A stretch of DNA of 64,000 nucleotides from Phycisphaeraceae bacterium (lineage in GTDB: Bacteria > Planctomycetota > Phycisphaerae > Phycisphaerales > UBA1924), in the NCBI GenBank assembly GCA_019636795.1, contig JAHBWW010000004.1, forward strand, positions 1-64,000, written 5' to 3'. Below are positions 33,864-61,153 of this stretch, one piece after another. Within the stretch, counting starts at the first letter, position 1, and each line of letters starts with the position of its first letter. A program made the translations under genes and the position numbers. The notes under the pieces are model-generated. The model did not search any database. It had not been told where the DNA came from and was given only the letters and a program-made list of their open reading frames with translations.

Positions 33864-33906
33864 CACGATAGAGATCGATCGCTTCACCGAGATTGCCGCG
33901 GGCTGA

Positions 33907-44403: not shown

Positions 44404-46112
44404 CAGAACGGCACCTCGTCGTCGCTGTAGCCGAGCGCCGCGAGGGCGTGCTCAGGCCCAACATCAGGAAGGCTGTCGGGATCCTCCAACCGGGGTGGCT
44501 TGTCGCCGAGCGCGTAGCCGACGATCCGTTCCCATTCGTCGCCGGGCTTCTTCTCCAGCGTGATGCGCTCGGTCCGGGCCACCGCGCCCGCGTTGGCCCA
44601 CTCGACGGCTTCCTCGACCGAAGACGGGGGCGGGTCATTGGAACGCTCTCGCCACCACTGCTCGGCTTTCCGGCGGGCGTATCCGCCCTCGGGGTGCTCC
44701 AGGCAGATCCACTCGCGGGCCCAGCGGTTGAAGCCGATGCGGTACTCGACGCGCATCGTCGGCTTGGCCAGCGGGTCGTTGCGCTTGTGGTGGACGTAGT
44801 ACGCGACCTCGATGACGCGCTCGTCGCGCCGGGCCGGGCCTTCCGAGCCGCTGACGACCTCTTCGTCGGAGGCGACCGCCGCGTGCTTGACCTGCCGCGG
44901 CGGGAACTTGTGCCCGCACTCGGGGCAGACGGCATACGCCGCGTGGATCAGCGCATCGCACTCGGGGCACTGCTTGGCGGGGGCGTCGGGGGGGGCACCC
45001 GAGGCGTCCTTGGTGTCCGCCAGGCGGATCGCGTCCACCGGGCCGTGCCGGAGGACGTTGCCGCCGAAGTCCAGCACGAGGCAGTCGGTCTTCCCATCGG
45101 CCAGGCGGAATCCCCGCCCGACCATCTGGTAGTAGAGCCCGGGGCTCATCGTCGGGCGCAGCATCGCCACGCAGTCGACATTCGGGGCGTCGAAGCCCGT
45201 CGTCAGCACGTTCATGTTCGCCAGGTACTTCAGGTCGCCCGACTTGAACCGGGCGATCAGCGCGTCGCGCTCCTTGGCCGGAGTCCCGCCCTCGACGAAC
45301 CCGCACTCAACGCCGTGCTTCTCGCGCAGCACCCGGACCACGTGCTCGCCATGCCGAGCGCCCGAGCAGAACAGAAGCACGCTGCGCCGGTCGGCCGTAG
45401 CGGCGACGACCTCCGCGCACGCCGCCTCGACCAACCCGTCCTCTTCCATGCGGTCCTCGAGCTCGCCTGCGACGAACTCCCCGCCCCGCACATGGATGTC
45501 GCTTGTGTCGACGACCGCCTTCCCGGCCCGGCTCTTGAGCGGGCACAGGTAGCCCTGCACGATCAGCTCGCGCACGCCCGCCTCGAAGCACACCCCGTGC
45601 AGCACAGACTCGGGGCCGCAGATCGTGCCGGTCTTCATGCGGTACGGCGTCGCCGTCAGCCCGATGACCCGCTGGTGGTCGCACAGGTCCCTCGCGTCGG
45701 CCAGGAAGCGGCGGTACATCCCCTCGCCGTCCGGCGGGATCAGGTGCGCCTCGTCGGCGATGACCAGATCGAGCGGCCCGAGGTCGTGCGCCCGCTGGTA
45801 GACCGACTGGATGCCCGCGATCGTCACGGCGTACCCGAGATCCCGCCGACCAAGCCCGGCGCTGAACACGCCCACTGGTAGGTCCGGCGCGACGGCCTGC
45901 AGCTTGCCCGCCGCCTGCTCGATCAGCTCCTTCACATGGGCGACCACGATCACCCGCCCGTTCCACTTCTGCACCGCGTCGCGGCATAGCTCGGCGATGA
46001 CGTGCGTCTTGCCCGAGCCGGTCGGAAGAACCACCGCGGGGTTCGTATCGCTGGCGGCGATGTGGTTCCACACGGCATCGACCGCGTCGCGTTGGTATGG
46101 CCTGAGTCCCAT
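44403..46112 (-). CDS. Superfamily 2 DEAD/DEAH helicase with a zinc ribbon
   Basis: A protein of 569 residues. Motif I LPTGSGKTHVIAELC, motif II VIADEAHLIPPDG, motif III LTATPYRM, and motif VI QMVGRGFRLADG. After the helicase domains comes a Cys4 ribbon (CPECDALIHAAYAVCPECG) and about 140 residues of unknown fold. It resembles phage helicases of the UvsW/RadD group that handle branched DNA. It is in the replication operon between RusA and the primase gene. Confidence 0.87.
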   Translation of the reverse strand: MGLRPYQRDAVDAVWNHIAASDTNPAVVLPTGSGKTHVIAELCRDAVQKWNGRVIVVAHVKELIEQAAGKLQAVAPDLPVGVFSAGLGRRDLGYAVTIAGIQSVYQRAHDLGPLDLVIADEAHLIPPDGEGMYRRFLADARDLCDHQRVIGLTATPYRMKTGTICGPESVLHGVCFEAGVRELIVQGYLCPLKSRAGKAVVDTSDIHVRGGEFVAGELEDRMEEDGLVEAACAEVVAATADRRSVLLFCSGARHGEHVVRVLREKHGVECGFVEGGTPAKERDALIARFKSGDLKYLANMNVLTTGFDAPNVDCVAMLRPTMSPGLYYQMVGRGFRLADGKTDCLVLDFGGNVLRHGPVDAIRLADTKDASGAPPDAPAKQCPECDALIHAAYAVCPECGHKFPPRQVKHAAVASDEEVVSGSEGPARRDERVIEVAYYVHHKRNDPLAKPTMRVEYRIGFNRWAREWICLEHPEGGYARRKAEQWWRERSNDPPPSSVEEAVEWANAGAVARTERITLEKKPGDEWERIVGYALGDKPPRLEDPDSLPDVGPEHALAALGYSDDEVPF

Positions 46113-46504
46113 CAGTTGGTCGCCTCCATGCTGGTGATCCGGACGACCACCTTGCCCCCGGGCACGACCGATCCGCGCTCGATCTCGAGCCGATCGATCT
46201 GGCCGTCGTCCTCGTACACCCCGCCGTGCCCAAGGGCGTCGAGCAGGGCCTTCATCGCGTTGTCCAGGTCCCGCCGACGCCGGTCGGGCGGGTGGGCGGT
46301 GACATGCACCGCCACGCGTCCCGACATGGGCTCTGCCGTTCGCCTGGCGAGCCGGGCGCAGACCCGTTTGCGGAACTTCCGTCCCTCGCGGCTGATCAGC
46401 GTCCGATCGCCGACGCGACGCCAGTAGTGGTTCACGCTGGGCGGGTACGGCAGCTCGACGACGAACGCGCCATCGTCCGCCGCCGCGGCGGTCAGCGCTT
46501 CCAC
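46112..46504 (-). CDS. rusA: RusA-family Holliday junction resolvase
   Basis: A 130-residue protein from the GTG at 46504, which follows GGGAGGG by eight bases and overlaps the DUF669 stop. ELPYPPSVNHYWRR and PDRRRRDLDNAMKALLDALG are the RusA signature, with Asp residues of the catalytic metal site. The enzyme cuts four-way junctions produced during recombination-dependent replication and packaging. Confidence 0.88.
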   Translation of the reverse strand: MEALTAAAADDGAFVVELPYPPSVNHYWRRVGDRTLISREGRKFRKRVCARLARRTAEPMSGRVAVHVTAHPPDRRRRDLDNAMKALLDALGHGGVYEDDGQIDRLEIERGSVVPGGKVVVRITSMEATN

Positions 46505-46953
46505 GGCGGCGTCCCTCCCGAGGCAGCCGCCATCGGGCGCTGCGGCGCGACGCCGGTGTCCCGCTTCGCGTAGCCCTTGATGGTGTTGGTTGGCTCGCCG
46601 TTGTCCTCGCGAGTCTTGATCGCGACGCTGACCACCAGCGGCAGGTTGTGCAGCTCGACCGAGTCGCGGGGCCGCAGCACGTTCACCGCCCGGCAGATCG
46701 CCGACAGCGTGCCCTTGGCGATCTCGACCGTCTGCGTGTTGGGGTGCTTGAGGGTCAGGCGGTCCCAGAGCTTGCGGCCCTTGAACGGCCCCTCCAGAAC
46801 CTCCATCTCGAGTTCCAAGTACTCGCCCTTGCCGTTCTTGGTCGGCTTCATGGCGCTGGCCGTGATGGCGGCCACGTACTTGCCGGCGGGGATGGGATCG
46901 AAGCCGGCATTGGGCTCCACATTGGTCGCGTCGAATCCGTTCAGATCTGCCAT
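46492..46953 (-). CDS. DUF669 phage protein, ssDNA-binding type
   Basis: A protein of 153 residues. It begins MADLNGFDATNVEPNAGFDP and contains GKGEYLELEMEVLEGPFKGR, the usual blocks of DUF669 proteins encoded between recombinases and helicases in many phages. The predicted beta-barrel fits a single-strand DNA-binding role; this is by family association. It overlaps RusA by 13 bases. Confidence 0.82.
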   Translation of the reverse strand: MADLNGFDATNVEPNAGFDPIPAGKYVAAITASAMKPTKNGKGEYLELEMEVLEGPFKGRKLWDRLTLKHPNTQTVEIAKGTLSAICRAVNVLRPRDSVELHNLPLVVSVAIKTREDNGEPTNTIKGYAKRDTGVAPQRPMAAASGGTPPWKR

Positions 46954-46956
46954 GGG

Positions 46957-47769
46957 TCAGGCTCCTTGCTCTTGGGTGGTCTGGTTGATCTCGTTCTGGT
47001 TGGCGTTCTCGATGGCTGCGCCGGGATCGCCCTCGCCGCGCGCCAGCGCCGCGAACACGCGGTAATCCAGCGGCAGCTCGTCGGGCAGGTTCAGGCGGTT
47101 CTTTGCGACGTGGGCGGGCCGCTCGGTCGTGCGGAGGATCCGCTCGCCCGTGCCGATGCCCTGCGTGCGCTTGCGGTCGAAGCCCTCGCTCTGGGTCTTC
47201 GTGTGGACGCGGTAGGTGGCGAAGAGCACCTCGTCGCACCACTCCTGGATCAGCGCCGAGGCCTGCTTCTGCAGGCGGGGCACGTAGCGGTCGTAGGTGT
47301 CGGTCTCGGGGTTGGCGAATTTCTCGATCGCCGCGTGCGCGATCAGGACAACCTGCATCCCGCGCTCGGTCCGCAGCGCGTCGAGGCCCGCCAGCACCTC
47401 GCGCCATTGCGTGAGCGCGAAGACGTACCCCTTGGCGTAGCCGATGTCCTCGATGGTCTCGACGCCGCGCTTCGCGCAGACCTCGGCCCAGATCAGCCGC
47501 TCGAGCCAGTCGAGGCTGTCGATGACCACCGTCTGGTAGCCGTGATCTTCGCTGTAGAGCGCCGACAGCGCCCCGAGCACGTTGGCGTACTTGGTCGCCA
47601 GCGGGAAGCGGTCGCAGTCGATGTCGTTCGTACCCTCTTCGGTCGTGATGAAGACGGGCGTCTCGGCCATCGCGCCGAAGGTGGACTTGCCGACGCCGTG
47701 GACGCCGTAGAGCATCACGCGACGCGGCATCAGCGTGCGGCCCTTCTGGATGTGTGCGAGTGCGGTCAT
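46957..47769 (-). CDS. AAA/RecA-like NTP-binding protein of the recombination module
   Basis: A protein of 270 residues from the ATG at 47769 (MTALAHIQK). Walker A YGVHGVGKSTFG, an early Asp in TVVIDSLDWLERL (Walker B) and QVVLIAHAAIEKF as the sensor match the AAA_24 family, typical of phages, often with a DUF669 gene beside it. It probably acts as a recombination mediator or annealing ATPase with the exonuclease encoded upstream. Confidence 0.82.
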   Translation of the reverse strand: MTALAHIQKGRTLMPRRVMLYGVHGVGKSTFGAMAETPVFITTEEGTNDIDCDRFPLATKYANVLGALSALYSEDHGYQTVVIDSLDWLERLIWAEVCAKRGVETIEDIGYAKGYVFALTQWREVLAGLDALRTERGMQVVLIAHAAIEKFANPETDTYDRYVPRLQKQASALIQEWCDEVLFATYRVHTKTQSEGFDRKRTQGIGTGERILRTTERPAHVAKNRLNLPDELPLDYRVFAALARGEGDPGAAIENANQNEINQTTQEQGA

Positions 47770-47831
47770 GATCGATGGGTCTCCTTGCGGTTGGTGGTGC
47801 GGGTTCGGGACTGGGTGCCCTGGTGCGACGG

Positions 47832-48677
47832 TCAGTTGGGCAGGCGGTCGTACAGCCGCAGGGACTCGAACCCCGTGGGCCACTGGCCGGTCTCCCGGCA
47901 GCGGATGAGCTCTTCGATCGCGCGGTCGTTCTCGGCCTGGGCGGCATCAAGGCACCGCGGCGCGATCTGCCACACGCCGCAGCGGAACGGCTCGCGCTTC
48001 TCGACCGCGACGATGTGGACGGGCAACGTGACACCGCTCACGACGGCGAGCAGCGCCCGGTAGAACGCGAGCTGGTGCAGGTACTTGAACGCGTCGATGT
48101 GCCACTCGAACGAGTCGATCGAGTCGCAGGTCTTCAGATCAACGAGCCCGCGGCCGTCCTTGGGGTTGATCCAATCGAACCGGGCCTGGCACAGCACCCC
48201 GTTCATCCGGCCGCGGACGACGCCCTCCGCGACACCCTCGGCCAGCAGCTCGCGGGCGAACAGATGCTCGCGCACGCTCGCCGCCATCTGCTCGACCGTC
48301 GCGGCGTCGGTGTCGGCCAGTACGGGCTTGCCGCGCTTCTCGGCCCACTCGGCGAACGCCTTCGTGCTCGATCCGTACGGCTTGCCTGTCTTCTCGTTGA
48401 TCGGCCCGCCGACCGCGTACTCGGCCTCGTAGCGCCCGCGACCCTCAAGGATGAGCGTGTGCGCCGCCCGCCCGACGAGGAACGCGTGGCTGTCCCGATC
48501 CGGGATCAGCCCCATCTCCTTGCGCCGGAACAGCAGCGGGCACGAGCGGAACTCCGCCAGCCGGTGCGAGGTCAAGCAATCGCTGCGACGGGCGTGGTAG
48601 GTCTCGGCGGGCTCGCGGATGAGCACGCGGGCGAGGCAAGAGTGGAGGTCGTCTGTGTTCTGGGGTATCGCGCTCAT
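47832..48677 (-). CDS. PD-(D/E)XK exonuclease, RecE/exoVIII-like
   Basis: A protein of 281 residues. FLVGRAAHTLILEG, GVLCQARFDWINPKDGRGLV and DLKTCDSIDSFEW match the DUF3799/RecE C-terminal nuclease: Asp and Glu/Asp-x-Lys in ARFDWI and VDLKTC form the metal site. It would resect double-stranded ends for annealing by partner proteins. It starts one base before the next stop, so it is part of the same early operon. Confidence 0.85.
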   Translation of the reverse strand: MSAIPQNTDDLHSCLARVLIREPAETYHARRSDCLTSHRLAEFRSCPLLFRRKEMGLIPDRDSHAFLVGRAAHTLILEGRGRYEAEYAVGGPINEKTGKPYGSSTKAFAEWAEKRGKPVLADTDAATVEQMAASVREHLFARELLAEGVAEGVVRGRMNGVLCQARFDWINPKDGRGLVDLKTCDSIDSFEWHIDAFKYLHQLAFYRALLAVVSGVTLPVHIVAVEKREPFRCGVWQIAPRCLDAAQAENDRAIEELIRCRETGQWPTGFESLRLYDRLPN

Positions 48678-48997
48678 CAGGCGGCCACCCCCTGCGGTGC
48701 GCGGACCTGACCGCTCCTGGGCCCGCCGCAGGGCATCCGCCGGACCGCGAACCCGTCGGCTCCGAACTCCTTAATCAGGAATGCCGTGAAGATCCGGACC
48801 ACGGCCGCCCCGCAGGGCGAGCCGCCATCGACCAGCAGCGCAGCGCGGGGCGGATCGGCGTGGTAGGACACATCGGTGCGGGTCCGGGCCTCACCGAAGA
48901 GGCCCTCCGCGGCCAGGATCGACAGGTGCAGCGTGGCCTCTGCCTCCGCCAGAGCGGCAGGGGAGGCGAATCGGAATCGAAACACATCGGTCAACAT
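48677..48997 (-). CDS. Small early phage protein of unknown function
   Basis: A protein of 106 residues starting MLTDVFRFRFASPAALAEAE. It has AlaGlu-rich helices and a strand VRIFTAFLIKEFG. It is preceded by AAGGAGCTCCTG and begins inside the TGATG junction with the short leader frame (48997-49137). It opens the replication operon. No family recognised. Confidence 0.6.
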   Translation of the reverse strand: MLTDVFRFRFASPAALAEAEATLHLSILAAEGLFGEARTRTDVSYHADPPRAALLVDGGSPCGAAVVRIFTAFLIKEFGADGFAVRRMPCGGPRSGQVRAPQGVAA

Positions 48998-49137
48998 CAG
49001 GAGCTCCTTTCACGGGCGCACCGACCGCCGCCCGTGAGACCCAGCCCCTCGAGCCGCGGCGTACACCGTGGTCGAGGGGCCGGGGCCTCCGGAGGGAAGA
49101 GAGAGAACCGGCGGTCCGGGGGCGCTTCTTGGGTCAC
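48997..49137 (-). CDS. Possible leader peptide of the early operon
   Basis: A frame of 46 codons beginning GTG in the 22-nt repeat (VTQEAP) and ending TGA in a TGATG overlap with the first early gene. The translation is Arg/Pro-rich with a few Cys. It spans a strong hairpin (CCCCTCGA stem, about 49045-49079). Translation of a leader through a hairpin could regulate the operon. No ribosome-binding site is seen, so confidence is low. Confidence 0.35.
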   Translation of the reverse strand: MTQEAPPDRRFSLFPPEAPAPRPRCTPRLEGLGLTGGGRCARERSS

Positions 49138-49145
49138 CTATGCCG
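49124..49145 (-). repeat. 22-nt leader element, copy 2 (before the early operon)
   Basis: Matches the 31780-31801 element at 20 of 22 positions on the same strand. It lies 20 bases past the sigma factor stop and about 130 before the first replication gene. See copy 1 for sequence and interpretation. Confidence 0.6.
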
Positions 49146-49165
49146 CCACCGCCGCCGGTGCGCGG

Positions 49166-49765
49166 TCAGGCCGGCCCAAACCCGGCCGCCTCGAAGCGGG
49201 CGCGGAACCGTTCGAGGGCGTTCTGGATCTGCCGGCGGCTCACCGCAGCGCCGGACCGGCGCGACCACTCGCGCGCGGCCGCCGCCTTGCCGTGCTCAGC
49301 GACCAGCCGAAGCAGGTCCCGGTCCTCCGGGTCGAGGGTGGCCATGACCGCCGCGACGGCCTCAGCGGTCTCGGCGGTATCGAACTGGCAAGCGGGGGCG
49401 GCTTGGCGGCGGCGCTGCTGGTCGGCAGGACCGAGGACGGTGCGAAGCGGGACGGCGTCGCCGTCGCACTCGACGAGCGTCCCCTCAAGGGAGATCGCCT
49501 CGTAATCGCCGCGCCGCTTGTGGCGGCCACGGAATCGCAGCTCCATCGCCACCCAGGAATCGATGGCGTTCGTGACGAACGCCTCGATGTTCCCCCGGGC
49601 GGGATCGAACAGGTGGGCCTTCTCCAGCAGATACAGCAGCATCTGCTGCGTCAGGTCGTCGCGGTCCGACCAGGAGAAGTCCGTGCGCCGGCAGAGCTGG
49701 GCGGCTTTGATGCGGATGAGGGTGGCGGTGAAGGGGTCAGAAACAATCTGGTTGGGGTTACCCAT
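49166..49765 (-). CDS. Phage-encoded sigma-70-family (ECF-like) sigma factor
   Basis: A protein of 199 residues. Region 2 is visible in DRDDLTQQMLLYLLEKAHLF and the following AFVTNAIDSWV. Region 4 is visible in LDPEDRDLLRLVAEHGKAAA and VSRRQIQNALERFRARF. The start follows GGAGG with six bases. A phage sigma factor would direct RNA polymerase to phage promoters. The 22-nt leader repeat, present in front of both the early and the structural operons, is a reasonable candidate for its target. Confidence 0.78.
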   Translation of the reverse strand: MGNPNQIVSDPFTATLIRIKAAQLCRRTDFSWSDRDDLTQQMLLYLLEKAHLFDPARGNIEAFVTNAIDSWVAMELRFRGRHKRRGDYEAISLEGTLVECDGDAVPLRTVLGPADQQRRRQAAPACQFDTAETAEAVAAVMATLDPEDRDLLRLVAEHGKAAAAREWSRRSGAAVSRRQIQNALERFRARFEAAGFGPA

Positions 49766-50135: not shown

Positions 50136-51911
50136 TTAGTGTGCCGTCGCTTCCGCCAGATACGAACGGCCGCCTGGGGTGATGGCGGCACCGGAGCGCG
50201 GACCATCCGGGTAGCACACGAGGTCCATTTCCCTTAGCTCCTTTAGCGCGATGCCAATGGTCTTACGCGTTCGGTGATGCCCGTTGGCTTTCATGGCGTC
50301 AACCAAATCAGCTTGGGTCATCAACGCTCTTGCCTTAGACAGCACCGAAAGGACTAGCACTTGATTCTTATTCAATGGATGTGATGGGCGTAATCCGTCA
50401 TCACCCCCTGATGGCTGCGCGGCCTTGGGTGGCGCGGCCTTTGGATCACCACCGTTCGTCCCGAAGCCAAACGCAAGCATGGATCCGTCGGCGATCTTTC
50501 CGTGATACTGATCTTCGGCCGACGCCTGCATAGCCTCGATGATCACCGCGTTGACCTGTTCGGCATGCCGCCGATGCAGATCAAACACGCTGTCTATGAC
50601 CACGGTCGGCGCGAGCGACATGAATCGGGTAACTCGTGCCAGCTCAGCGGCGTACCGCTGAGCGAACTCGGCAGAGTCCTCTAATGCAGCGATTTCGCGC
50701 GCAAAGCCGAGAAATCGCTCGGCGATAATGCGGTCCTCGGTTTGCTTCCGGGGCTCCGTCAGCACATCGTGTCGATAAAGACTCGATGGCTCTAGCGTTC
50801 CGCCGTCTACACCGAGCGTTGCGAAGCGACGCGACACGCACTGTGAGCACACGCCACAGTGCGGGCTCGCCTTGGTCGTCTCCCGAGTGTGCATGCAACT
50901 CACGCTGGAAGCGATCAACTCTCCCTGACCTGCGTGTTTGATGATCTCTACCACGTCCTGCTTGGTCTTCGTCAGAAATTCGTTCCGAACCTGGAACTTC
51001 TGCTCGAACACCGCCGACAGGAGTTGGCTGTACCACGCCAAGGTCTGGGGATGTGTCGTCCGAGTTGCCCGTGCGCCGAGCTCATGCTCAGCCAGGGGGA
51101 GGTTGATGCTCACCACTCCGTTCTCGAAGAAGTCGACAGCATCCAAGCCGAAGATCCGCGCCACAACCGCCCCAAGCGTGACATAGAGGAAGGATCGTGT
51201 CCGCTGAGTGTGATCCTTCTCCACCAACCCCTTCTTGTTGCACCAGACGGATACTGGCAGCGGGGCATTGCCGGACACCGAAGCTCGTTTAACAAGCTCC
51301 TTCACGAGACTCTTCTGCAGCCCGGCCACATGACCCGCTGGCTTGTGGCTCACCATTGCAATGCGCCGCCCGGCAGAAAGCTCTTGCACGGCTCCGCCCA
51401 GGGAATCGATTCCGCCCGAGAAGAGGAGCACCTTCTCGATCCCTTCTGGATTCGGGTCACCGGAGCCGAATTCCAGGTAGGTCTCTACCGCAGGGGGTTC
51501 GTGTAGTTCAGCGAAGGCGAACTCGAAGTTGTCGCCGGAGATGAAGTTCAACATGCGGCACAGCAGGCCAGCAACGTCTTCCTGATTCCAAAAGTCCGGG
51601 TCCCGGACAGCGATCTCCATCCGGATGTCGCGGTACCATAAATCGCCGTAATCTTGGGTCTTTCGACCAGTTCGCTTGGACAATTGGTCAGCGACATACA
51701 CCGCCGCCGCGATCTCGATGAGATCGGCTGCTCGCTTCGGTACATTGGCCGTTAGTGACTTGGAGATCTCTGAGATCTTGATGACGACATTGCTTGCAGG
51801 GCCATCTGTGATGAGTTCTGTAGCCTTTAGCTCACGCCACAGTTTCCGCCGGCTAGAGAGGCCTGCGCCGTTGCACAAGAACAGATGCGGCTTGGGCCGA
51901 TCAGGAGGCAT
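50136..51911 (-). CDS. QueC-like PP-loop protein with C-terminal winged helix, candidate defence protein
   Basis: A protein of 591 residues. The PP-loop LLFSGGIDSLGGA (SGGIDS at 165-170) and a Cys4 zinc site (C339, then CGVCSQC at 352-358) are those of QueC, the 7-cyano-7-deazaguanine synthase. QueC is about 230 residues, and this protein adds about 160 at the N terminus and a C-terminal winged helix (NKNQVLVLSVLSKARALMTQ onward). QueC-like proteins appear in anti-phage systems such as Qat and some CBASS loci, where they may modify proteins or nucleic acids. It is co-transcribed with the unknown gene at 51901-52758. Confidence 0.8.
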   Translation of the reverse strand: MPPDRPKPHLFLCNGAGLSSRRKLWRELKATELITDGPASNVVIKISEISKSLTANVPKRAADLIEIAAAVYVADQLSKRTGRKTQDYGDLWYRDIRMEIAVRDPDFWNQEDVAGLLCRMLNFISGDNFEFAFAELHEPPAVETYLEFGSGDPNPEGIEKVLLFSGGIDSLGGAVQELSAGRRIAMVSHKPAGHVAGLQKSLVKELVKRASVSGNAPLPVSVWCNKKGLVEKDHTQRTRSFLYVTLGAVVARIFGLDAVDFFENGVVSINLPLAEHELGARATRTTHPQTLAWYSQLLSAVFEQKFQVRNEFLTKTKQDVVEIIKHAGQGELIASSVSCMHTRETTKASPHCGVCSQCVSRRFATLGVDGGTLEPSSLYRHDVLTEPRKQTEDRIIAERFLGFAREIAALEDSAEFAQRYAAELARVTRFMSLAPTVVIDSVFDLHRRHAEQVNAVIIEAMQASAEDQYHGKIADGSMLAFGFGTNGGDPKAAPPKAAQPSGGDDGLRPSHPLNKNQVLVLSVLSKARALMTQADLVDAMKANGHHRTRKTIGIALKELREMDLVCYPDGPRSGAAITPGGRSYLAEATAH

Positions 51912-52758
51912 CAGACCCCCCGAGATGCGTCAGCGCATCGCCCACCTTCTCCAAAGCATGACGGACAAAGCCAGCACTCTTCCGAGGCGTGATGCCGCCT
52001 TGAAAGTTGTGCTTGGAGTACCAAGTTCCCGAGAACTCTTTGAGCACAGACGACGCGGTTCGACAATGCGCTTCCATCGCCGATAGGAATGCATTGTGCT
52101 CGGACACGTCGGCGAATCTGCGGCCCGGCCCGACGTGGTTCGATAGCTCCTTGCTCAAGTGGTAGATGAGGAAGCCACTTGCCACACGACCGAAGAAGTC
52201 TTGGGTCAGGCGAGCGAATCCTGACTGCGTAGACAGCCGTCGCAGTGCATCTTGCACTGCGTCCGGACCCGTCCCAAAGAGGGTATTTGCGTACTCCTGG
52301 CCCAAGACGGTCAGGCTTTGAGCGGCGGCCCGTTGAGCGATCTCGCTCAGGTCCGAGCGAGATCGTGTGCTGGCCAGATGATCGTCGATGGCGTACGTGA
52401 AGTTGCCGACCAGGTCATAGATGGTGTTGGCAATGGAGGCACCATCCCCTTGGGAGAAACCGGATTCCCAGGCACCACCCGTGACCCCAAGCTCGGCCAG
52501 GCGTTCATTGAAGCGGTCTTCATCCCGGGCTGCCTGCGTGACCTGCGTGAGCAGGTAGAACGTATGAATCAGGCCTTCATCAGTCGCAGCACGCTCGAAC
52601 CCTGCGATCGCAGCGGCCAGCATCGCGTCAGCCACTTGTGCGAGCGCACCTTGCCCCACGCCGGGCAATCCCGCCATGCCAGCACCATCGCCCAGCATGG
52701 CGACAACGCGTCTGTGCGACCGCGTAACCGGTAGGCTTTCGACCTGATGGTGGCCCAT
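51901..52758 (-). CDS. Unknown partner of the QueC-like protein
   Basis: A protein of 285 residues, unrecognised. The N-terminal 50 residues are Gly/Ala-rich (GDGAGMAGLPGVGQGALAQV). The C-terminal block AFLSAMEAHCRTASSVLKEF, then SGTWYSKHNFQGGITPRKSA, looks conserved in type and could form a helical interface. It precedes and overlaps the QueC-like gene by 11 bases, so the products probably work together. In Qat loci a QatB of unknown function is paired with QatC (QueC-like); no direct sequence match could be confirmed. The first ATG has no good ribosome site, and a later one 20 codons in is possible. Confidence 0.65.
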   Translation of the reverse strand: MGHHQVESLPVTRSHRRVVAMLGDGAGMAGLPGVGQGALAQVADAMLAAAIAGFERAATDEGLIHTFYLLTQVTQAARDEDRFNERLAELGVTGGAWESGFSQGDGASIANTIYDLVGNFTYAIDDHLASTRSRSDLSEIAQRAAAQSLTVLGQEYANTLFGTGPDAVQDALRRLSTQSGFARLTQDFFGRVASGFLIYHLSKELSNHVGPGRRFADVSEHNAFLSAMEAHCRTASSVLKEFSGTWYSKHNFQGGITPRKSAGFVRHALEKVGDALTHLGGSDAS

Positions 52759-53018: not shown

Positions 53019-53882
53019 TCAGGCACCGTCTTCAGACATCCTCCGATAGACATCGTCCAGCGTCTGGCCCCTAGCATTCCGCCACTCGATCCAGCCGTTC
53101 GCACTGCTCCCGGTGACCAGACTCGCAGCAGCACTGGGTGAGCTGAAGACGACATCCCGCTCAAAGCGGTAGCCCTGAGGCGTTCGAGTAAGTAGGCCGC
53201 TGCCGATCATCTCTTCACGCTTCGGCCCGACGGTGTCATGAGACGACGAGGTGGTCTCTTGGCGAGCGATCGAGCCCTTGAGGACCACAAAGCCCTCTTC
53301 GTTGTAGACACCTCTCGCGTCAGACCCGCCGCGGCGGCACATGAACACCTGGTCCGCACTCGCGGCATCTCGCGATGAGGCTTCAAAGATCGGGTGCCCA
53401 AGAGTGCCAAGCAGAACCTCGAGCGTCTCAAAGATCTCCGCGACATCGGCTGCCATCCACTCCGGCACATTCGGTTTTCCCCCAGCGTTGCCGTTATCGA
53501 GGTCGTAGCGACCGGCGACTCTGGCCTTCTCGATCGCCATCCATTCGAGAAGTTTGGCGTGTGCCTTCGTGAAGCTGCCGGTCCGCGAGACGATCGCGAC
53601 ACCGATGTTCCAAAAGTCCTTGTTCTTGTTGTGCTGCTTGAAGCGGACGCCGCAGTCTTCGGCCTCACCGATGTAGGCGACCGGAAGGCCCGCAGCCTCT
53701 GATTCGCCGAAGAGGAAGTACACGCCGACGCCGGCCAACTCCTCACGCTTCACCGCCTCATCCAAGCGAGCGCGTGGGACCACGACCGCCTGGACAATGC
53801 GCGTGGTGATCTCTGCGATGCGGACGCCACGAGGGTCACCCGATGGGCAGTAGATCTGAATGGTCTTCCCGGCAGCGAGCAT
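53019..53882 (-). CDS. GIY-YIG nuclease with DUF4357 domain
   Basis: A 287-residue protein from the ATG at 53882, with AAGGG five bases upstream; the GTG 18 bases earlier has none. The N-terminal half carries GVGVYFLFGESEA...VAYIGEAEDCGVRFKQH, a GIY-YIG nuclease. The C-terminal part ends FSSPSAAASLVTGSSANGWI, then EWRNARGQTLDDVY, the DUF4357 signature. These fusions are frequent beside type I restriction genes. It lies directly downstream of hsdM and may cut foreign DNA or assist restriction. Confidence 0.85.
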   Translation of the reverse strand: MLAAGKTIQIYCPSGDPRGVRIAEITTRIVQAVVVPRARLDEAVKREELAGVGVYFLFGESEAAGLPVAYIGEAEDCGVRFKQHNKNKDFWNIGVAIVSRTGSFTKAHAKLLEWMAIEKARVAGRYDLDNGNAGGKPNVPEWMAADVAEIFETLEVLLGTLGHPIFEASSRDAASADQVFMCRRGGSDARGVYNEEGFVVLKGSIARQETTSSSHDTVGPKREEMIGSGLLTRTPQGYRFERDVVFSSPSAAASLVTGSSANGWIEWRNARGQTLDDVYRRMSEDGA

Positions 53883-53915
53883 CGATTCCCTTTCTTGCAC
53901 GACCAGCGCCGAAAC

Positions 53916-55538
53916 TCACGGCAACGGCGTCAGGCCCAACTCCTCCAGAAACCCGTTGTGTGCCGTCTTCGCCTTATTGATCCTCTTCTCGATACCCATC
54001 AAATCGCCGTGCGTCGCCTGAAGGTCGATCTGCTCCTCGGGCTCCGCTGTGCTCACGTAGCGCGAGATGTTGAGGTTGAAGTCATTCGTTTCAATCTCAT
54101 CCATCTCGACCCGTCGGGCATACCGCTCAATCTCATCTGGGCGATCGCGGTAGGTATCGATGATTCGCTGAATGTGTTCCGGGCTCAGGAAGTTCTGTCG
54201 CTTGCCCTTGTCGAATCCCTTTTCGGCGTTGATGAACAAGACGTCATCGGATCGCTTGCACTTCTTGAGCACGAGGATGCAGACCGGGATACCGGTCGAA
54301 TAGAACAGGTTCGCGGGCAGACCGATGACGGTGTCAATGTGCCCGTCCTCCAGCAACTTCCGCCGGATCCTCGATTCGGCAGCGCCGCGGAACAGCACCC
54401 CGTGCGGCAGGATGATGGCCATGACGCCATCATCCTTGAGGTAGTGCAGCCCGTGCAGCAGGAACGCGAAGTCCGCCGCCGACTTGGGTGCGACGCCGTG
54501 ATCCTTGAACCGTGCGTCCTTGCTGGTCTCCTCCTTGGGCGTCCAGCGGTAACTGAACGGTGGATTGGCCACGACCGCGTCGAACTTCGGTCGGTTCGCC
54601 GGGTTGGGGTCTGTCAAGAGCTCCCAATCGTTGACGAGCGTATCGCCGTGGTGGATGTGGAACTCCGAGTCCTTCACGCCGTGCAGCAGCATGTTCATGC
54701 GGGCGAGGTTGTAGGTCGTGACGTTCTTCTCCTGCCCGTAGGTCATGCCGACCGTGCCGCCGGCGTCCGCGATGTGCCGCCGCACATTGAGCAAGAGCGA
54801 GCCGGAGCCGCACGCGAAGTCGTATACGGCTTCGAGCTTCTTTCGCGGCCCGCTCTCCGGCGCTTGGCTGTCAAGCGTGACGATCGCCGAGAGGATCGAA
54901 CTGATGGGCTGAGGCGTGTAGAACTCGCCGGCCTTCTTGCCGGATCCGGCGGCGAATTGGCCAATCAGATACTCGTAGGCGTCGCCAAGCGTGTCGGCGT
55001 CGGTCGAGAACTCCTTCAGGCCGTCGGCGATGCGGGTCACGACCGTGCACAGCTTCTGGTTCCGCTGTTTCAGGGTCTTGCCAAGCTTCTCAGAGACCAG
55101 GTTGATCTCCGAGAACAGTCCTCCGAAGGTGCTTTGGAATGAATCGTTCTCGATGTACTTAAACGCGGCCTGCAGCGTGTCGAGCAGGTAGTCATCCTGC
55201 TTGCGTGCGAGGTGGGCGATGTTCGTCCAGAGGTGTTCCGGCTTGATGACATAGTGCGCCTTCTTGCGCATCTGCGCCTCGAACGCCGGGACATCGGCCT
55301 CGTTCTCCGCGTACCAGACCGAGAGCGGCGTCCGTCCGCCGTTGCCGACCGCATCCGGGTCGGGGTAGTCGCGGCCCAGTTCCTTCTTGGCCGCTTCCTC
55401 GTAGTTGTCGGACAGGTAGCGCAGGAACAACAGCGCGAGCATGTAGTCGCGGAAGTCGTCCGCGTTCATCGCGCCGCGCAGGTCGTCGGCAATGGACCAG
55501 AGGACTTTGCCCAGTCGCTTTTGATCGTCGTTTGTCAT
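53916..55538 (-). CDS. hsdM: Type I restriction-modification methyltransferase subunit HsdM
   Basis: A protein of 540 residues. The N-terminal helical domain (LWSIADDLRGAMNADDFRDY) is followed by the N6-adenine methyltransferase core: motif I DFACGSGSLLLNVRRH and motif IV VVANPPFSYRW. It works with HsdS (2:1) to methylate the host recognition sequence. Its start overlaps the stop of the PrrC-like gene (ATGA), so the anticodon-nuclease candidate sits directly between S and M. Confidence 0.93.
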   Translation of the reverse strand: MTNDDQKRLGKVLWSIADDLRGAMNADDFRDYMLALLFLRYLSDNYEEAAKKELGRDYPDPDAVGNGGRTPLSVWYAENEADVPAFEAQMRKKAHYVIKPEHLWTNIAHLARKQDDYLLDTLQAAFKYIENDSFQSTFGGLFSEINLVSEKLGKTLKQRNQKLCTVVTRIADGLKEFSTDADTLGDAYEYLIGQFAAGSGKKAGEFYTPQPISSILSAIVTLDSQAPESGPRKKLEAVYDFACGSGSLLLNVRRHIADAGGTVGMTYGQEKNVTTYNLARMNMLLHGVKDSEFHIHHGDTLVNDWELLTDPNPANRPKFDAVVANPPFSYRWTPKEETSKDARFKDHGVAPKSAADFAFLLHGLHYLKDDGVMAIILPHGVLFRGAAESRIRRKLLEDGHIDTVIGLPANLFYSTGIPVCILVLKKCKRSDDVLFINAEKGFDKGKRQNFLSPEHIQRIIDTYRDRPDEIERYARRVEMDEIETNDFNLNISRYVSTAEPEEQIDLQATHGDLMGIEKRINKAKTAHNGFLEELGLTPLP

Positions 55539-56776
55539 TTGGTCACAGCCTCTTGATTGTCTTCCGGTTCACTCGTGGGGAGTCCAGGGAAGTGTTGCCG
55601 ACTGAACGCGTAGTCGCGGATAAACGCATGGAGCATCGCGCGGAACACACGCTTGTTGTCTTCCACCATCTCGGTGGGTTCGTAGACGGAGTAGCCGCCG
55701 TGACTGAGTAGATTCAGCAGACGCGTGTGCAGCACGCCGTCAAAGTCGTCTGCATTGCGCTTGATGCAATCAGAGAAGCTGTTGTACCCAAGGAAGCTGG
55801 CCGTCTTCTCCGCAACGGCCCGGAGCGAGTTGAAGTGGTATGTATCGAGGTTGCCGCTCCCGCCTCGCTCGTAGAGCTCCGCGAGGGTGGCAATGTGGTG
55901 AAAAAACGGCGTCGCCTCGGTATTGCGGATCAGATAGTCGTCCGTCGACAGGTCGCGGCTGAGAAAATACCTGCGAGAATGCTTCTTGAGTTCATTCCAG
56001 AGCACGTTGTGAAAGAGCGGGTGGTGTGTCGAAATCACCACGCCCGGCGGAGCACTCGTTCTTTCCCCGCTGGCGTGGCTTTGGTGCGCTTGCTTGAGGA
56101 GCATCGCGAGATGCGTCGCCACCTTGACCGCGTTCTGCTCGTCTAGCGATGAGATCGGGTCATCGATGTAGATGTACTTGACCCAGTCGTACGCATCCAG
56201 GTCGGGGTCGAGGGCGACCTCGACGATGGCCAGGAAGAAGCACCAGATGAAGATGTTCTCTTCGCCCCGCGAGACCTTGATGTGCTCAATGGTCTCTGAA
56301 CGATCCGAGCCATCGTCCTCCTTCACCAAGATCTCTCGGCTGAACGACACTCGGCCCTCATCGAGCATCGGCTTCTCGTCGTCCTTGCCAGGGGCGCGGT
56401 ACTTCAGGTCCACATCGATCGTGAAATCGGCGAAGTAGTTCAGAAGTGACTGCACCCGATTCGCGATCTCGAACTCGCCCAGTCCTGCGAAGAAGCGCGA
56501 CTTGGCGTTCAGCTCGAGGGTGCGGCGCTCATCATTGTCCAGGTCGTTGTCCCACGAAAACAGGTCCTCAGTGAAGGCGTTGAAGTAGAGCGTGTCGCCC
56601 GAGACGACATCATCCTCTTCGTTGAACTGCTTGCCGAGCCTGTTGAACTCGCGGGAGAGCCGGGTCTTCCCTGTGCCGTTGTAGGCATACAGCAGGATGT
56701 ACCGATGCTGCTGCAGCTCATTCCTGAGGTGCTCAGCCAAAACAGTGAGATCTGGAAAGGACTGACCCTGCGCCAT
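55535..56776 (-). CDS. prrC: PrrC-type anticodon nuclease candidate (ABC ATPase plus ACNase domain)
   Basis: A protein of 413 residues, close to PrrC (396). N-terminal ABC-type ATPase: Walker A NGTGKT (33-38), signature VSRGEENIF, Walker B YIYIDDPISSLDE and switch ISTHHPLFHN. The C terminus has R319-A-V-A-E323 and SHG with His359, the Arg-Glu-His order of the PrrC/RloC catalytic triad (R320, E324, H356 in PrrC). PrrC sits within a type I system, silenced by the complex until phage inhibition activates tRNA-Lys cleavage. The overlap with hsdS and hsdM fits this coupling. Substrate is unproven; other AAA proteins share this fold. Confidence 0.72.
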   Translation of the reverse strand: MAQGQSFPDLTVLAEHLRNELQQHRYILLYAYNGTGKTRLSREFNRLGKQFNEEDDVVSGDTLYFNAFTEDLFSWDNDLDNDERRTLELNAKSRFFAGLGEFEIANRVQSLLNYFADFTIDVDLKYRAPGKDDEKPMLDEGRVSFSREILVKEDDGSDRSETIEHIKVSRGEENIFIWCFFLAIVEVALDPDLDAYDWVKYIYIDDPISSLDEQNAVKVATHLAMLLKQAHQSHASGERTSAPPGVVISTHHPLFHNVLWNELKKHSRRYFLSRDLSTDDYLIRNTEATPFFHHIATLAELYERGGSGNLDTYHFNSLRAVAEKTASFLGYNSFSDCIKRNADDFDGVLHTRLLNLLSHGGYSVYEPTEMVEDNKRVFRAMLHAFIRDYAFSRQHFPGLPTSEPEDNQEAVTK

Positions 56777-58083
56777 CAGCCACCTCCATCGGCCGCGTCC
56801 GGCGTTGGGAAGAGCTGCTGCATGAGGCCGCGTTTGTGGTCGTGGAGAGCGACTAGCTTATCAGCGTGCGCCGTGATAAGGGCATCCAGCGACACGAGAC
56901 AATCAGCTATGCGCTCCTGCTCAGCAGGACCGGGTGCCGATAGCCTTAACTGCTTTACTTCGTCAGTGTCCAGTCGTCCGGTGCCGTGTCCAGCTATGTC
57001 TACGAGTGCCCGCAGATTCGGCTTATTGGCGATCAGGAGATAGGCAAGGAACTCACCGCGCGTCCCCTTCCGTGGGGTGAGAGCTTTGATATCCTGATTG
57101 AATGTCATGGGTCGTTGCAGCAGGCAAATCGGTACATCCTTCATCAATGTCATGCCACGTGTGAGCATGAGCAATGTGCCAGCAGGCACCAGCCTCGCAC
57201 CCTCGTCCACCGCAAGCTGGGTGATGTGGTCCTCGCTATCCTGCAATCTCAGTTTCTTCATGTCCTTCGCGGATACCCACGGGATCGAGCCGCCCCAGTA
57301 GGCGGGATTGCTCTTGGATGGCGTCCCACCAGACTTGAAGCTTGCGAGTTCGTCAATCGACTTTGGTTGCCACTGCCGCGTATCGCGGAACTCCGGAAAC
57401 CGAAGCCGCGGGCGGGATTCGCCCGGGCGGGGGAAGAGCTGTTGCATGAGGCCGGTCTTGTGCCGGCGGAGTGCCGCCAGGGCTTCCGTCTCGGCCGCGA
57501 TCCAGTCGTCCAGCGAGCCGAGGCACTCCGCGATCTTGCGCTGTTCGGCCGGCTCAGGCAGGAGCAGCGGTACGTCGCGAAACACTCCCTTCGAGATGTT
57601 GTACCGGGTTGCACCCTGAGCGCTGCGAGCGAGGTGCTTCCTGACTACCCCAGATCGGAGCGCATACCCCAAGAAGACCGGGTCTGGTGAGCGACCTTCA
57701 TGAAAGCGAAACAAGGCACAGAACGAGTTGAGGTAGCAGTCCTCGATGTCACCGAGGAGAACGCTCGACATGCCCGCGTCCTCTGGGGTCTCTGATGAAA
57801 CGGTGAAGAAAACGTCGCCTCGGGCGACGGCGTTCTGCGTCTCGCCCTCACCGACATCGACCGCACGCAGATCATGGAGATCCGTGAAAGTGTTCGAGAA
57901 GACGTTCATGTACGGGATAAACCTGGCGTCACCCGTATCGAAGTCAGCTGCAGACTTCCCTGTGAGTGAGGACAAGAACGCGCCGCGGGTACCAAGACGC
58001 TTGACATTCCAGCCCGCGGCATTCCGGAACTGCGGAAACCGAAGATGCGGTTTTGGCTTGGTTGTCTTGTCGTCCTTGCTCAT
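56776..58083 (-). CDS. hsdS: Type I specificity subunit HsdS
   Basis: A protein of 435 residues with two target-recognition domains and two conserved helical repeats. Repeat ends are EQRKIAECLGSLDDWIAAE, followed by LAALRRHKTGLMQQLFP, and EQERIADCLVSLDALITAH, followed by LVALHDHKRGLMQQLFP. Domain 1 (residues about 15-200) and domain 2 (about 235-410) each bind one half of a bipartite DNA site. Its stop overlaps the start of the PrrC-like gene. Confidence 0.93.
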   Translation of the reverse strand: MSKDDKTTKPKPHLRFPQFRNAAGWNVKRLGTRGAFLSSLTGKSAADFDTGDARFIPYMNVFSNTFTDLHDLRAVDVGEGETQNAVARGDVFFTVSSETPEDAGMSSVLLGDIEDCYLNSFCALFRFHEGRSPDPVFLGYALRSGVVRKHLARSAQGATRYNISKGVFRDVPLLLPEPAEQRKIAECLGSLDDWIAAETEALAALRRHKTGLMQQLFPRPGESRPRLRFPEFRDTRQWQPKSIDELASFKSGGTPSKSNPAYWGGSIPWVSAKDMKKLRLQDSEDHITQLAVDEGARLVPAGTLLMLTRGMTLMKDVPICLLQRPMTFNQDIKALTPRKGTRGEFLAYLLIANKPNLRALVDIAGHGTGRLDTDEVKQLRLSAPGPAEQERIADCLVSLDALITAHADKLVALHDHKRGLMQQLFPTPDAADGGG

Positions 58084-58108
58084 GGCCTGATCCTCTCTGT
58101 CGTCTCGT

Positions 58109-61100: not shown

Positions 61101-61153
61101 CCGACGAGCCGGTCTATCAGAGCCTGCTCGAGTTCGCGTTCTGCTGAGGTCAT
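58109..61153 (-). CDS. hsdR: Type I restriction endonuclease subunit HsdR
   Basis: A protein of 1014 residues. An N-terminal PD-(D/E)XK nuclease (YDVMLLINGIPAVQIELKT), a superfamily 2 motor with Walker A HTTGSGKTLTSFK, DECHRSQFG and TGTPIF, then QAFSRTNRVLND as motif VI, and a helical C terminus. It translocates DNA and cuts at a distance when HsdM-HsdS meet an unmodified site. It starts inside the ATGA overlap with the HTH gene, so the complete operon reads HTH, R, S, PrrC-like, M, then GIY-YIG. Confidence 0.94.
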   Translation of the reverse strand: MTSAERELEQALIDRLVGLKYEHRPDIRDRDALNANFREKFETLNRVKLTDGEFGRLLDEIVVADVFDAAVRLRERSSFVRDDGTPLNYSLVNIKDWCKNTFEVVSQLRINTANSFHRYDVMLLINGIPAVQIELKTLGISPRKAMQQIVDYKSDPGNGYTNTLLCFVQLFVVSNRDRTYYFTNNNKKHFAFNADERFLPVYEFADSKNEKISHLDDFAESFLAKCTLGRMISRYTVLVAGEKQLLMMRPYQIYAVQQIVDCIKDNTGNGYIWHTTGSGKTLTSFKASTLLKTNDDIHKCLFVVDRKDLDRQTRDEFNRFQAGCVEENTNTAALVKRLLSDNYADKVIVTTIQKLGLALDEQSKRNKQRAERGRDTYSDLLAPLRDKRMAIIFDECHRSQFGQTHQTIKDFFPKAQFFGFTGTPIFEENATARKVDGDVQTLMTTADIFQQPLHQYTITDAIEDRNVLKFNVDYFQHGGEDARKANPDAVKRAIVDNILDKHDAATNSRRFNALLATASINDAIAYFDLFAEAQAERQAEDPDFKPLKIAAVFSPPAEGNADVRQLQEDLPQELADNQQQPDEKKAALTRIIADYNARYGTNHKLAEFDAYYSDVQERIKNQKFPDADMPGKDGTPGGGKIDLVIVVDMLLTGFDSKYLNTLYVDKKLKHHGLIQAFSRTNRVLNDTKPHGQILDFRGQKDNVDEAVRMFSGLEATGEGAEESRKIWLVDPAPVVIEKLKAAKADLDAFLEGQGLPPAPSSIANLKGDAARAGFVQQFKEVQRLQVQLDQYTDLSDAQKQEIEATLPKDDLRGYRGAYLETAKQLRDQSQSSDEPDPTVDDLDFELVLFASATIDYDYIMTLISQMSQAPASGKSTKTRMTREELIALIQSDAKFLDEKDDIAAYVRSLEAGKGLSVREVEAGYARFKAEKQQQAMHDLAAVHGLETDALEAFTAEVLDRMIFDGEKLTDLLAPLGLGWKDRQRKEQELMAGLIPLLKQRAAGRRINGLAAWEQ

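What the first reader, a model, noticed from the sequence alone, without database searches (positions are those of the whole stretch)
50136..52758. Two-gene system: unknown protein plus QueC-like enzyme with winged helix
The QueC-like protein keeps the PP-loop and the Cys4 site but is more than twice the size of QueC and has extra domains. No preQ0 pathway genes are present, so it is not for queuosine. Its partner is unrecognised. In a defence island beside a type I system this is a strong candidate for an undescribed anti-phage module, perhaps distantly Qat-like but lacking the ATPase and TatD genes.
Basis: partly seen in the sequence, partly recalled or inferred. Interest (0 to 1): 0.68.

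Follow-up and report, generated by a model that had tools for sequence, protein, structure and literature searches.

The report
Prophage-carried two-gene QatBC-like module
A bacterial virus sleeping in this chromosome carries two genes that look like a stripped-down, rewired version of the core of a known anti-virus system (Qat), in which one enzyme probably tags the first amino acid of its partner protein; the pair is found in many other bacteria, often as cargo of such viruses, and I found no description of it.

Summary
Window 50136-52758 (-) carries two overlapping genes: a 591-aa QueC-family protein and a 285-aa partner. The enzyme is a complete QatC (predicted residues 7-486 match the QatC crystal structure, Z 34.6) plus an extra, winged-helix-like C-terminal domain. 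The unrecognised partner has the QatB fold (Z 14.2, 212 of 215 residues; next unrelated chain 5.7). Its N-terminus, MGH...LPxTxxW, replaces QatB's MGTS tail; the Gly follows the start codon in 55 of 55 readable GTDB loci and 28 of 29 viral loci. The enzyme is adjacent in 57 of 60 GTDB and 28 of 29 IMG/VR partner loci. No qatA or qatD hit lies in any of these stretches. Best reading: a phage-borne two-gene relative of the QatBC core that modifies the partner's N-terminal glycine and excludes competing phages, with exchangeable C-terminal domains on the enzyme. Homology is well supported; chemistry and defence are inferred, and a lysogeny-control role is not excluded. New variant of a known kind.

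The parts
50136..51911 (-). QatC-like enzyme (591 aa): full QatC (residues 7-486) plus C-terminal extra domain
   Evidence: NCBIfam QatC 2.7e-62, 211 bits, below its 280-bit cut-off; PADLOC QatC 1.4e-57; predicted model vs 9y01_B Z 34.6, 410 of 428 residues, rmsd 3.0
51402..51419 (-). SGGIDS pyrophosphate loop, residues 165-170
   Evidence: S165, G166, G167, D169, S170 in 40 of 40 rows
51048..51065 (-). TRTTHP, residues 283-288: the Thr-x-Thr of QatC (T278/T280) in place of the Tyr/Asp that reads CDG in QueC and Cap9
   Evidence: T283 is Thr in 27 and Ser in 13 of 40 rows, T285 Thr in 39, T286 and H287 in 40; T278/T280 from PMC13279940
50826..50897 (-). Cys4 zinc site C339, C352, C355, C358 and R361-R362
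   Evidence: 40 of 40 rows
50139..50453 (-). extra C-terminal domain (residues 487-591), winged-helix-like, beyond the part that matches QatC
   Evidence: predicted model, low confidence at 487-511 and after residue 560; structural match to QatC stops at 486; no convincing Pfam family (Mrr_N E 0.13)
51901..52758 (-). QatB-like partner, 285 aa, all-helical, putative substrate
   Evidence: predicted model pLDDT 74; best PDB match 9y01_A QatB; no convincing sequence family
52714..52758 (-). N-terminal motif, residues 1-15 (a common form in the family is MGHxRLGxLPRTRKW; the window reads MGHHQVESLPVTRSH, without the Trp)
   Evidence: M1 G2 H3 P10 invariant in 13 rows; Gly after the start codon in 55 of 55 readable GTDB loci
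61906..63603 (-). large serine recombinase (phage integrase) at the end of the prophage (coding part as scanned; the frame with stop reaches 61903)
   Evidence: Pfam Resolvase 1.4e-38, Recombinase 7e-13, zinc ribbon 6e-16
61499..61903 (-). conserved 135-aa ORF after the integrase, marks one side of the cargo slot
   Evidence: tblastn hit in 76 of 80 integrase loci; no Pfam family of note
53019..61153 (-). type I restriction-modification cassette (HsdR, HsdS, PrrC-like AAA protein, HsdM, GIY-YIG/DUF4357) sharing the slot
   Evidence: Pfam and PADLOC; no hsd hit in L033 or L034, where the enzyme is 92-93% and the partner about 95% identical
42241..49765 (-). phage early module: sigma-like, DUF3799 exonuclease, AAA_24, DUF669, RusA, helicase, AAA_25
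   Evidence: Pfam, PHROGs
21885..36198 (-). phage structural genes: terminase 33913-36198, portal about 30027-31793, protease/capsid about 28000-30018 (by eye only), tape measure 21885-23885
   Evidence: PF05136 at 30423-31382, 2.8e-60; terminase; tape measure

Best explanation
The pair is a phage-borne two-gene relative of the QatB-QatC core of the Qat anti-phage system. Shown here (by sequence and predicted structure): the enzyme has the QatC fold, active site and zinc site; the partner has the QatB fold; the two genes travel together without qatA or qatD beside them; the partner's N-terminus is fixed as Met-Gly, nearly always Met-Gly-His; in the window the pair is cargo of a prophage. Inferred: the initiator Met is removed, the enzyme binds ATP, adenylates the carboxyl group of a small molecule (7-carboxy-7-deazaguanine or something similar) and joins it to the N-terminal glycine of the partner within a stable complex. 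The modified complex then stops a competing phage. The enzyme's exchangeable C-terminal domain (winged-helix-like in the window, OmpR-type winged helix or DpnII/MboI-type nuclease domain in some relatives) brings the complex to DNA or acts on DNA, in place of the separate QatA and QatD proteins. The prophage gains because it protects its host from rivals.
For: QatC homology by sequence, structure and active-site residues. QatB fold of the partner from an alignment that held no QatB sequence. Enzyme adjacent in 57 of 60 GTDB and 28 of 29 IMG/VR partner loci, 0 of 89 with a qatA or qatD hit, while the same HMMs find both in 5 of 5 qat loci not used to build them. Gly after the start codon in 55 of 55 readable GTDB loci and 28 of 29 IMG/VR loci; the exception (L151, MDH) is also the one IMG/VR locus without the enzyme. 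Published: QatBC alone gives defence against lambda-vir; QatB G2 and tail residues 16-22, the SGGxDS serines and T278/T280 are needed (PMC13279940, read in part). 16 of 80 sister-integrase stretches also hold genes related to the window's type I restriction genes. Domain swapping at the enzyme's C-terminus.
Against: No defence activity is shown. The chemistry of QatC itself has not been reconstituted (PMC13279940). The first predicted helix of the partner starts at residue 13, against a tail of 30-90 residues in many QatB, so reach to the active site is not assured. Profile-profile comparison of partner and QatB is weak (hhalign P 0.008, probability 5%). Helical folds can give a high Z by chance (note). 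T283 is Ser in 13 of 40 relatives although its QatC counterpart is called invariant. Some pair-bearing genomes show no match to the QueD, canonical QueC and QueE models used, so CDG may not be the small molecule. The slot also holds repressor-like genes in sister phages.
Confidence: 0.6

Rival explanations
1. The pair is the prophage's own lysogeny or immunity regulator: the winged helix binds phage operators and the QatC/QatB chemistry switches it. It sits between integrase and early genes, where repressors often lie.
For: In sister phages the same slot holds clusters whose example sequences I read as ImmA/IrrE-like (10 loci) and LexA-like (5 loci), and single HTH genes (by eye, no family search). 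In four pair phages looked at (L141, L158, L161, L166) I saw no recognisable repressor beside the pair in the slot (by eye).
Against: Only 3 of 80 closest-integrase stretches carry the pair, so it is not core. The enzyme's tail is a DpnII/MboI-type nuclease domain in L105 and L112. 23 of 44 GTDB loci with at least 2.6 kb upstream show no hit to the window's integrase there, and the Leptospira plasmid stretch shows no hit to the window's phage genes.
Confidence: 0.17
2. Generic QatBC-type defence without protein modification: the enzyme uses ATP as a sensor or switch and the complex acts by binding DNA or phage protein.
For: QatC chemistry is unresolved in print (PMC13279940); Thr-x-Thr replaces the CDG-reading Tyr/Asp (window 51048-51065); Tropicimonas sp. 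IMCC6043 carries the pair but shows no match to the QueD and two QueE models and no QueC over the cut-off.
Against: The MG(H) start is conserved far better than the body of the partner, which is what a modified N-terminus predicts; the Cys4 site and PP-loop are invariant.
Confidence: 0.15
3. An anti-restriction or counter-defence module that protects the phage from host systems.
For: Phage-borne, near the integrase.
Against: The closest characterised relative, QatBC, restricts phages (PMC13279940); the slot is shared with restriction genes.
Confidence: 0.05
4. A queuosine or preQ0 enzyme with an accessory subunit.
For: QueC family.
Against: The genome already has canonical queC and a QueE-like gene; QatC fails to restore Q in a queC mutant (PMC13329287); Thr-x-Thr replaces the CDG-reading residues; partner has the QatB fold.
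Confidence: 0.02

Closest known systems
qatABCD (Qat) anti-phage system, QatB-QatC core
   Same: QatC fold, SGGxDS, TRTTHP, Cys4 plus RR; QatB fold; partner gene directly before and overlapping the enzyme gene; MG start followed by a conserved Pro and, in many members, a Trp
   Different: no qatA or qatD beside it; MGH instead of MGTS; first helix at residue 13 instead of after a 30-90-residue tail; extra variable C-terminal domain on the enzyme; separate branch in the tree (100/98 together with L113 and L116); often phage cargo
Type IV CBASS Cap9 and its CD-NTase
   Same: QueC-family enzyme beside a protein with an N-terminal MG; N-terminal deazaguanylation is the proposed chemistry
   Different: partner has the QatB fold; no CBASS family in the PADLOC scan of the four window proteins tested; CDG-reading Tyr/Asp replaced
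Canonical QueC (preQ0 synthase)
   Same: PP-loop and Cys4 fold core; 3bl5 and 2pg3 Z 13.4
   Different: N- and C-terminal extensions, partner gene, Thr-x-Thr; genome has a separate queC

Membership tests
qatABCD (Qat) | QatC fold including N- and C-terminal extensions of QatC | tested here: met
   Z 34.6 to 9y01_B over 410 of 428 residues
qatABCD (Qat) | QatC motifs: D63, SGGxDS, RxRxxxF/Y, ExG, Thr-x-Thr-Thr-His-Pro, Cys4 with RR | tested here: met
   in the window and in 38-40 of 40 rows at most positions. Departures: T283 is Ser in 13 of 40; position 243 is Tyr or Phe in 39; the Pro of P(x)4TK is Glu in the window (Pro in 33 of 40); D75-R80-W92-R94 are in 40 of 40 but 11 residues separate R80 and W92 in the window where the published pattern has 7. 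Motif list from PMC13329287 and PMC13279940
qatABCD (Qat) | QatC equivalog score over the curated cut-off | tested here: not met
   NF041925: 210.9 bits against 280
qatABCD (Qat) | QatB fold in the adjacent gene | tested here: met
   Z 14.2, 212 of 215 residues, next unrelated chain 5.7; sequence-profile comparison weak
qatABCD (Qat) | QatB N-terminal MGTS on a 30-90-residue disordered tail | tested here: not met
   MGH in 53 of 55 readable GTDB loci; first predicted helix at residue 13
qatABCD (Qat) | qatA (KAP NTPase) in the operon | tested here: not met
   0 of 60 GTDB and 0 of 29 IMG/VR stretches; none in the window
qatABCD (Qat) | qatD (TatD) in the operon | tested here: not met
   0 of 60 and 0 of 29; none in the window
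qatABCD (Qat) | phage restriction in vivo | not testable with these tools
   needs plaque assays
Type IV CBASS (Cap9) | CD-NTase partner | tested here: not met
   partner: no PADLOC family up to E 1 and best fold match QatB
Canonical QueC | Tyr/Asp CDG-recognition residues and QueC equivalog score | tested here: not met
   TRTTHP instead (sequence); TIGR00364 22.5 bits against 150.3
N-terminal deazaguanylation enzymes | covalent 7-deazaguanine on the partner's glycine | not testable with these tools
   needs intact-mass spectrometry

The most novel reading that the evidence does not exclude
There is a separate, compact branch of QueC-based immunity, often carried by temperate phages: one enzyme that conjugates a small carboxylate, not necessarily de novo CDG, to the N-terminal glycine of a QatB-fold partner marked by MGH. 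DNA-binding or nuclease effectors are swapped on the enzyme's own C-terminus instead of being separate genes, and the module serves as prophage-encoded exclusion.
Probability: 0.45. Interest if true: 0.75.

Novelty: new variant of a known kind. Interest (0 to 1): 0.62.

Why it matters
What QatC does and how modified QatB stops a phage are stated open questions (PMC13279940). This branch gives a natural minimal version, two genes without QatA or QatD, with a sharply conserved N-terminus (MGH) and effector-like domains fused to the enzyme. That makes the chemistry and the effector step directly testable in one complex. Pair-bearing genomes in which no CDG pathway was detected offer an independent way to ask what the small molecule is. 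It also shows that QueC-family modules of this kind occur in bacteria of at least eight phyla (by record titles, many of them metagenome bins) and often as phage cargo beside restriction systems.

Tried and rejected
Close-relative search of viral contigs with the enzyme alone found nothing; the partner profile then found 29 loci. tblastn of the enzyme against named phages found only two Listeria phage records at 28% identity. tblastn of the window partner against plasmids: no match. The Leptospira plasmid pair was found through the enzyme, and its partner matched no other plasmid. The Tropicimonas partner matched no named phage. Sequence profile of the partner against PDB sequences: only chance hits. 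hhalign partner vs QatB: weak, so the QatB claim rests on structure and context. BFVD search with the partner model: nothing convincing. The window's extra domain alone has no convincing Pfam family. The VIA list for the enzyme covers the QatC part only, so the tail fold was not tested by itself. The idea that the pair is a core phage regulator was tested by asking how often the closest integrases carry it: 3 of 80. The idea of a chromosomal defence island was dropped when terminase, portal and tape-measure genes were found. PADLOC tallies of 235 neighbours against 117 control proteins suggest more defence genes near the pair, but they count families rather than proteins, list at most 25 families, and the control regions end at QueD-like genes, so no ratio is claimed.

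Rows left out: L046 (1 of 14 long enzyme hits in 200 relatives) lacks the partner and has a different, DUF2924-like N-terminus by eye, apparently a chimera. L107, L109 and L110 have no enzyme hit (contig edge or broken frames). Five of 60 GTDB N-termini could not be read: L087 and L107 (contig edge), L105 (contig start), L102 (fused to another reading frame), L108 (broken frame, an LGHFRPGDLPQTRKW stretch is visible in another frame). A first count by pattern (55 of 60, one of them, L107, a false hit) was repeated without a pattern. Two of 47 enzymes in the tail count are cut short by a stop (L058, L103); in L058 the same frame goes on after the stop with a further match, so I do not count them as tail-less. 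Neighbour tables used 50 of 60 loci. Control proteins used 117 of 146 (limit on residues). Queuosine searches used 50 pair genomes for QueD and 12-13 selected ones for QueC, QueE and TGT. E. coli-type and other QueE models were not tried, and QueD was not searched in the window's own genome.
Full report
OBSERVATION. Two genes lie on the minus strand at 50136-51911 (591 aa) and 51901-52758 (285 aa) and overlap by 11 nt. The larger matches Pfam QueC only in its zinc-site part (28.6 bits), but matches the QatC models along residues 52-393 and 52-416 (NCBIfam 2.7e-62, PADLOC 1.4e-57). The smaller matches no Pfam, NCBIfam or PADLOC family up to E 1 and only a chance PHROG (E 0.4). The genome has its own canonical queC elsewhere (C1:61598-62227) and a QueE-like gene next to it (C1:60867-61559, 77.5 bits, below that model's cut-off), so the pathway absent from the window seems present in the cell.

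THE ENZYME. A predicted model of the 591-aa protein from an alignment of 40 pair enzymes (mean pLDDT 81) matches the QatC chain of the QatB-QatC crystal structure over residues 7-486 (9y01_B, Z 34.6, rmsd 3.0, 410 of 428 residues), far above QueC (13.4) and Cap9 (13.3). Of the QatC features named in PMC13279940 (parts 1-3 of 6 read, and passages) and PMC13329287 (parts 1-3 of 5 read), the following are in 40 of 40 rows: D63, the SGGxDS letters, both Arg of RxR, E263 and G265 of ExG, T286-H287, the four Cys and RR. The Thr-x-Thr that replaces the CDG-reading Tyr/Asp in QatC is present in the window (T283, T285); the first is Ser in 13 of 40 rows, the second Thr in 39. The Pro of P(x)4TK is Glu in the window. 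Residues 487-591 lie beyond QatC. The model shows three helices and a short strand pair, winged-helix-like, with low confidence after residue 560. Among 47 pair enzymes the tail falls into groups that do not match each other at E 1e-4: 21 with one long type, 7, 6, 3, 2 of the window type, 2 (L105 and the Leptospira plasmid protein L112), 4 singletons and 2 cut short by a stop. Pfam gives Trans_reg_C (OmpR-type winged helix) to 7 of the 47 and DpnII-MboI nuclease to 2; the listing does not name the members, but a direct search places DpnII-MboI in L112 (5.4e-12) and in the genome of L105 (4.7e-9) at what matches the 3' part of the enzyme gene. That the 7 Trans_reg_C members are the group of 7, and that other groups bind DNA, is my reading.

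THE PARTNER. A model from 13 family members, none of them QatB (pLDDT 74), has QatB as its first Foldseek hit (probability 0.99, E 0.13, no hit below 0.001). VIA-align gives Z 14.2, rmsd 3.5 and 212 of 215 residues, against 5.7 for the best unrelated chain. The tool warns that helical models can reach such Z by chance. The gap to the next chain, full coverage and operon position make me accept it. Sequence-profile comparison with seven QatB proteins is weak (P 0.008, probability 5%). QatB keeps MGTS and Pro16/Trp18 in a long tail, and G2D or loss of residues 16-22 abolishes defence (PMC13279940). Here a common form of the first residues is MGHxRLGxLPRTRKW; the window itself reads MGHHQVESLPVTRSH. 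In all 53 GTDB loci whose tblastn match starts at residue 1 the start codon (48 ATG, 3 TTG, 2 GTG) is followed by Gly: 51 GH, 1 GQ, 1 GN. Two more read from the ORF (L062, L098) are MGH, which makes 55 of 55 readable; 5 of 60 could not be read. In IMG/VR 28 of 29 have the Gly (26 GH, one with an internal stop further on, 1 GT, 1 GN). The exception, L151 with MDH, is also the only IMG/VR locus without the enzyme. The Leptospira noguchii plasmid partner, not found by tblastn from the window, still begins MGHERLGILPKTRSW.

CO-OCCURRENCE. Among 200 related genomes, 14 long enzyme hits were found, 13 with the partner directly upstream; four other hits are ordinary qatABCD operons. In GTDB, 57 of 60 partner loci have an enzyme hit next to the partner (one, L108, only an 80-aa remnant), most overlapping by 4-14 nt if the start codon nearest the partner's stop is taken. 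In IMG/VR it is 28 of 29. HMMs made from four qat loci find qatA and qatD in 5 of 5 other qat loci but in 0 of 60 and 0 of 29 pair stretches; 29 of the 60 have at least 4 kb upstream and 6 kb downstream of the partner. A tree of 62 proteins puts the 50 pair enzymes with L113 and L116 on one branch (100/98), apart from the QatC of qatABCD; several long branches make inner details unsure. Hosts, by record title, include Planctomycetota, Pseudomonadota, Myxococcota, Acidobacteriota, Bacteroidota, Thermodesulfobacteriota, Zixiibacteriota and Spirochaetota (many are metagenome bins).

CONTEXT. The window holds a prophage on the minus strand: tape measure, protease/capsid (by eye), portal (PF05136, 2.8e-60), terminase, AAA_25/primase, helicase, RusA, DUF669, AAA_24, exonuclease and sigma-like genes. 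Then come the pair, a type I restriction cassette, a 135-aa ORF and a large serine recombinase at 61906-63603. Whether it can be induced is unknown. In L033 and L034 no hsd gene is found and only a 45-46-aa stretch of the GIY-YIG gene remains beside the pair. Of 235 neighbours of the pair in 50 loci, 15 are serine recombinases (9 of 127 and 6 of 108); none is among the 25 of 75 families shown for 117 control proteins. Of 44 GTDB loci with at least 2.6 kb upstream, 21 have a hit to the window's recombinase there; of 36 with at least 6 kb downstream, 16 have genes of the same early module. In the 80 viral contigs with the closest recombinases, 76 have the 135-aa ORF and 44 the AAA_24 or DUF669 gene in the stretch held, but only 3 carry the pair, while 16 hold genes related to the window's type I restriction genes. 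Slots that could be closed on both sides (40 of 76) measure 992-6229 bases, median 3175; ORF clusters in them include one I read as HsdM (14 loci), ImmA/IrrE-like (10) and LexA-like (5), by eye from example sequences, and single HTH genes. So the pair is variable cargo in a slot that holds both restriction and lysogeny-control genes.

MECHANISM. QatB and QatC alone protect against lambda-vir, form a 1:1 complex, and need the QatB glycine and the QatC active site; the reaction is unresolved (PMC13279940). Cap9 of type IV CBASS joins CDG to an N-terminal glycine (start of the abstract of PMC11996544 seen, and PMC13279940). By homology I infer an ATP-dependent conjugation to Gly2 of the partner, with the C-terminal domain as DNA-facing part. 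On the small molecule: 44 of 50 pair genomes have a QueD-family hit. Tropicimonas sp. IMCC6043, a named strain genome, shows no QueD hit, no QueC over the cut-off and no hit to two QueE models, while having TGT; two bins (G247, G249) look the same. Against leaning on this: another genome (G220) has canonical QueC yet no QueD or QueE hit with the same models, so models or assemblies miss genes, and other QueE types were not searched. The short N-terminal stretch of the partner is a further open point.

NOVELTY. Searches for QueC, QatC, QatB, deazaguanylation and combinations with winged helix, prophage and defence island list no paper whose title or abstract start describes this pair; long listings were capped (15 of 31, 20 of 137) and the library holds open-licence PMC papers only. 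A second structural paper on QatBC is not held. The PF06508 survey (PMC13329287) treats QatC as one cluster with a median length of about 400 aa and does not mention such a pair in the parts read. A term search of the DefensePredictor main text finds no QueC or Qat; a review lists QueC only for qatABCD and type IV CBASS (PMC10952713, one passage). I file it as a new variant of a known kind: QatBC-like by fold and active site, not a member of qatABCD by operon, N-terminal motif, tail and score.

Noticed in passing
window 53019-61153: The type I restriction cassette has a PrrC-like AAA protein (55535-56776; PADLOC PrrC 8.4e-122) between hsdS and hsdM, and a GIY-YIG/DUF4357 gene (PDC-S14, 1.5e-101). 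The PrrC anticodon-nuclease motif was not checked.
   Followed up: partly
L112:5129-7773 (Leptospira noguchii plasmid): A diverged MGH pair whose enzyme ends in a DpnII/MboI-type nuclease domain, annotated as hypothetical proteins.
   Followed up: partly
L116:2004-7616 (Mesorhizobium sp. AR10 plasmid): Another QueC-like variant: CHAT-domain gene, a 229-aa protein starting MGS, a QatC-like enzyme and an ASCH gene in a row; perhaps a further N-terminal-glycine system.
   Followed up: no
L151:10001-10765: A partner homologue in a viral contig with no enzyme hit begins MDH, so both the enzyme and the glycine are missing; the start codon is not certain.
   Followed up: partly
window 61499-61903 and sister phages: A conserved 135-aa ORF directly after the serine integrase, with a helix-turn-helix-like stretch (by eye), marks a cargo slot with diverse occupants in these phages.
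   Followed up: partly
L047-L050: Ordinary qatABCD operons with MGTS QatB occur in genomes of the window's own bacterial family.
   Followed up: partly
L113:4736-7278 (Rhodobacteraceae SC52 plasmid): A pair-type enzyme with IS3-family elements directly upstream and no partner hit in the stretch.
   Followed up: no
window 1983-17105: Genes that look by eye like RND-type metal efflux and cation-transport clusters lie outside the prophage.
   Followed up: no
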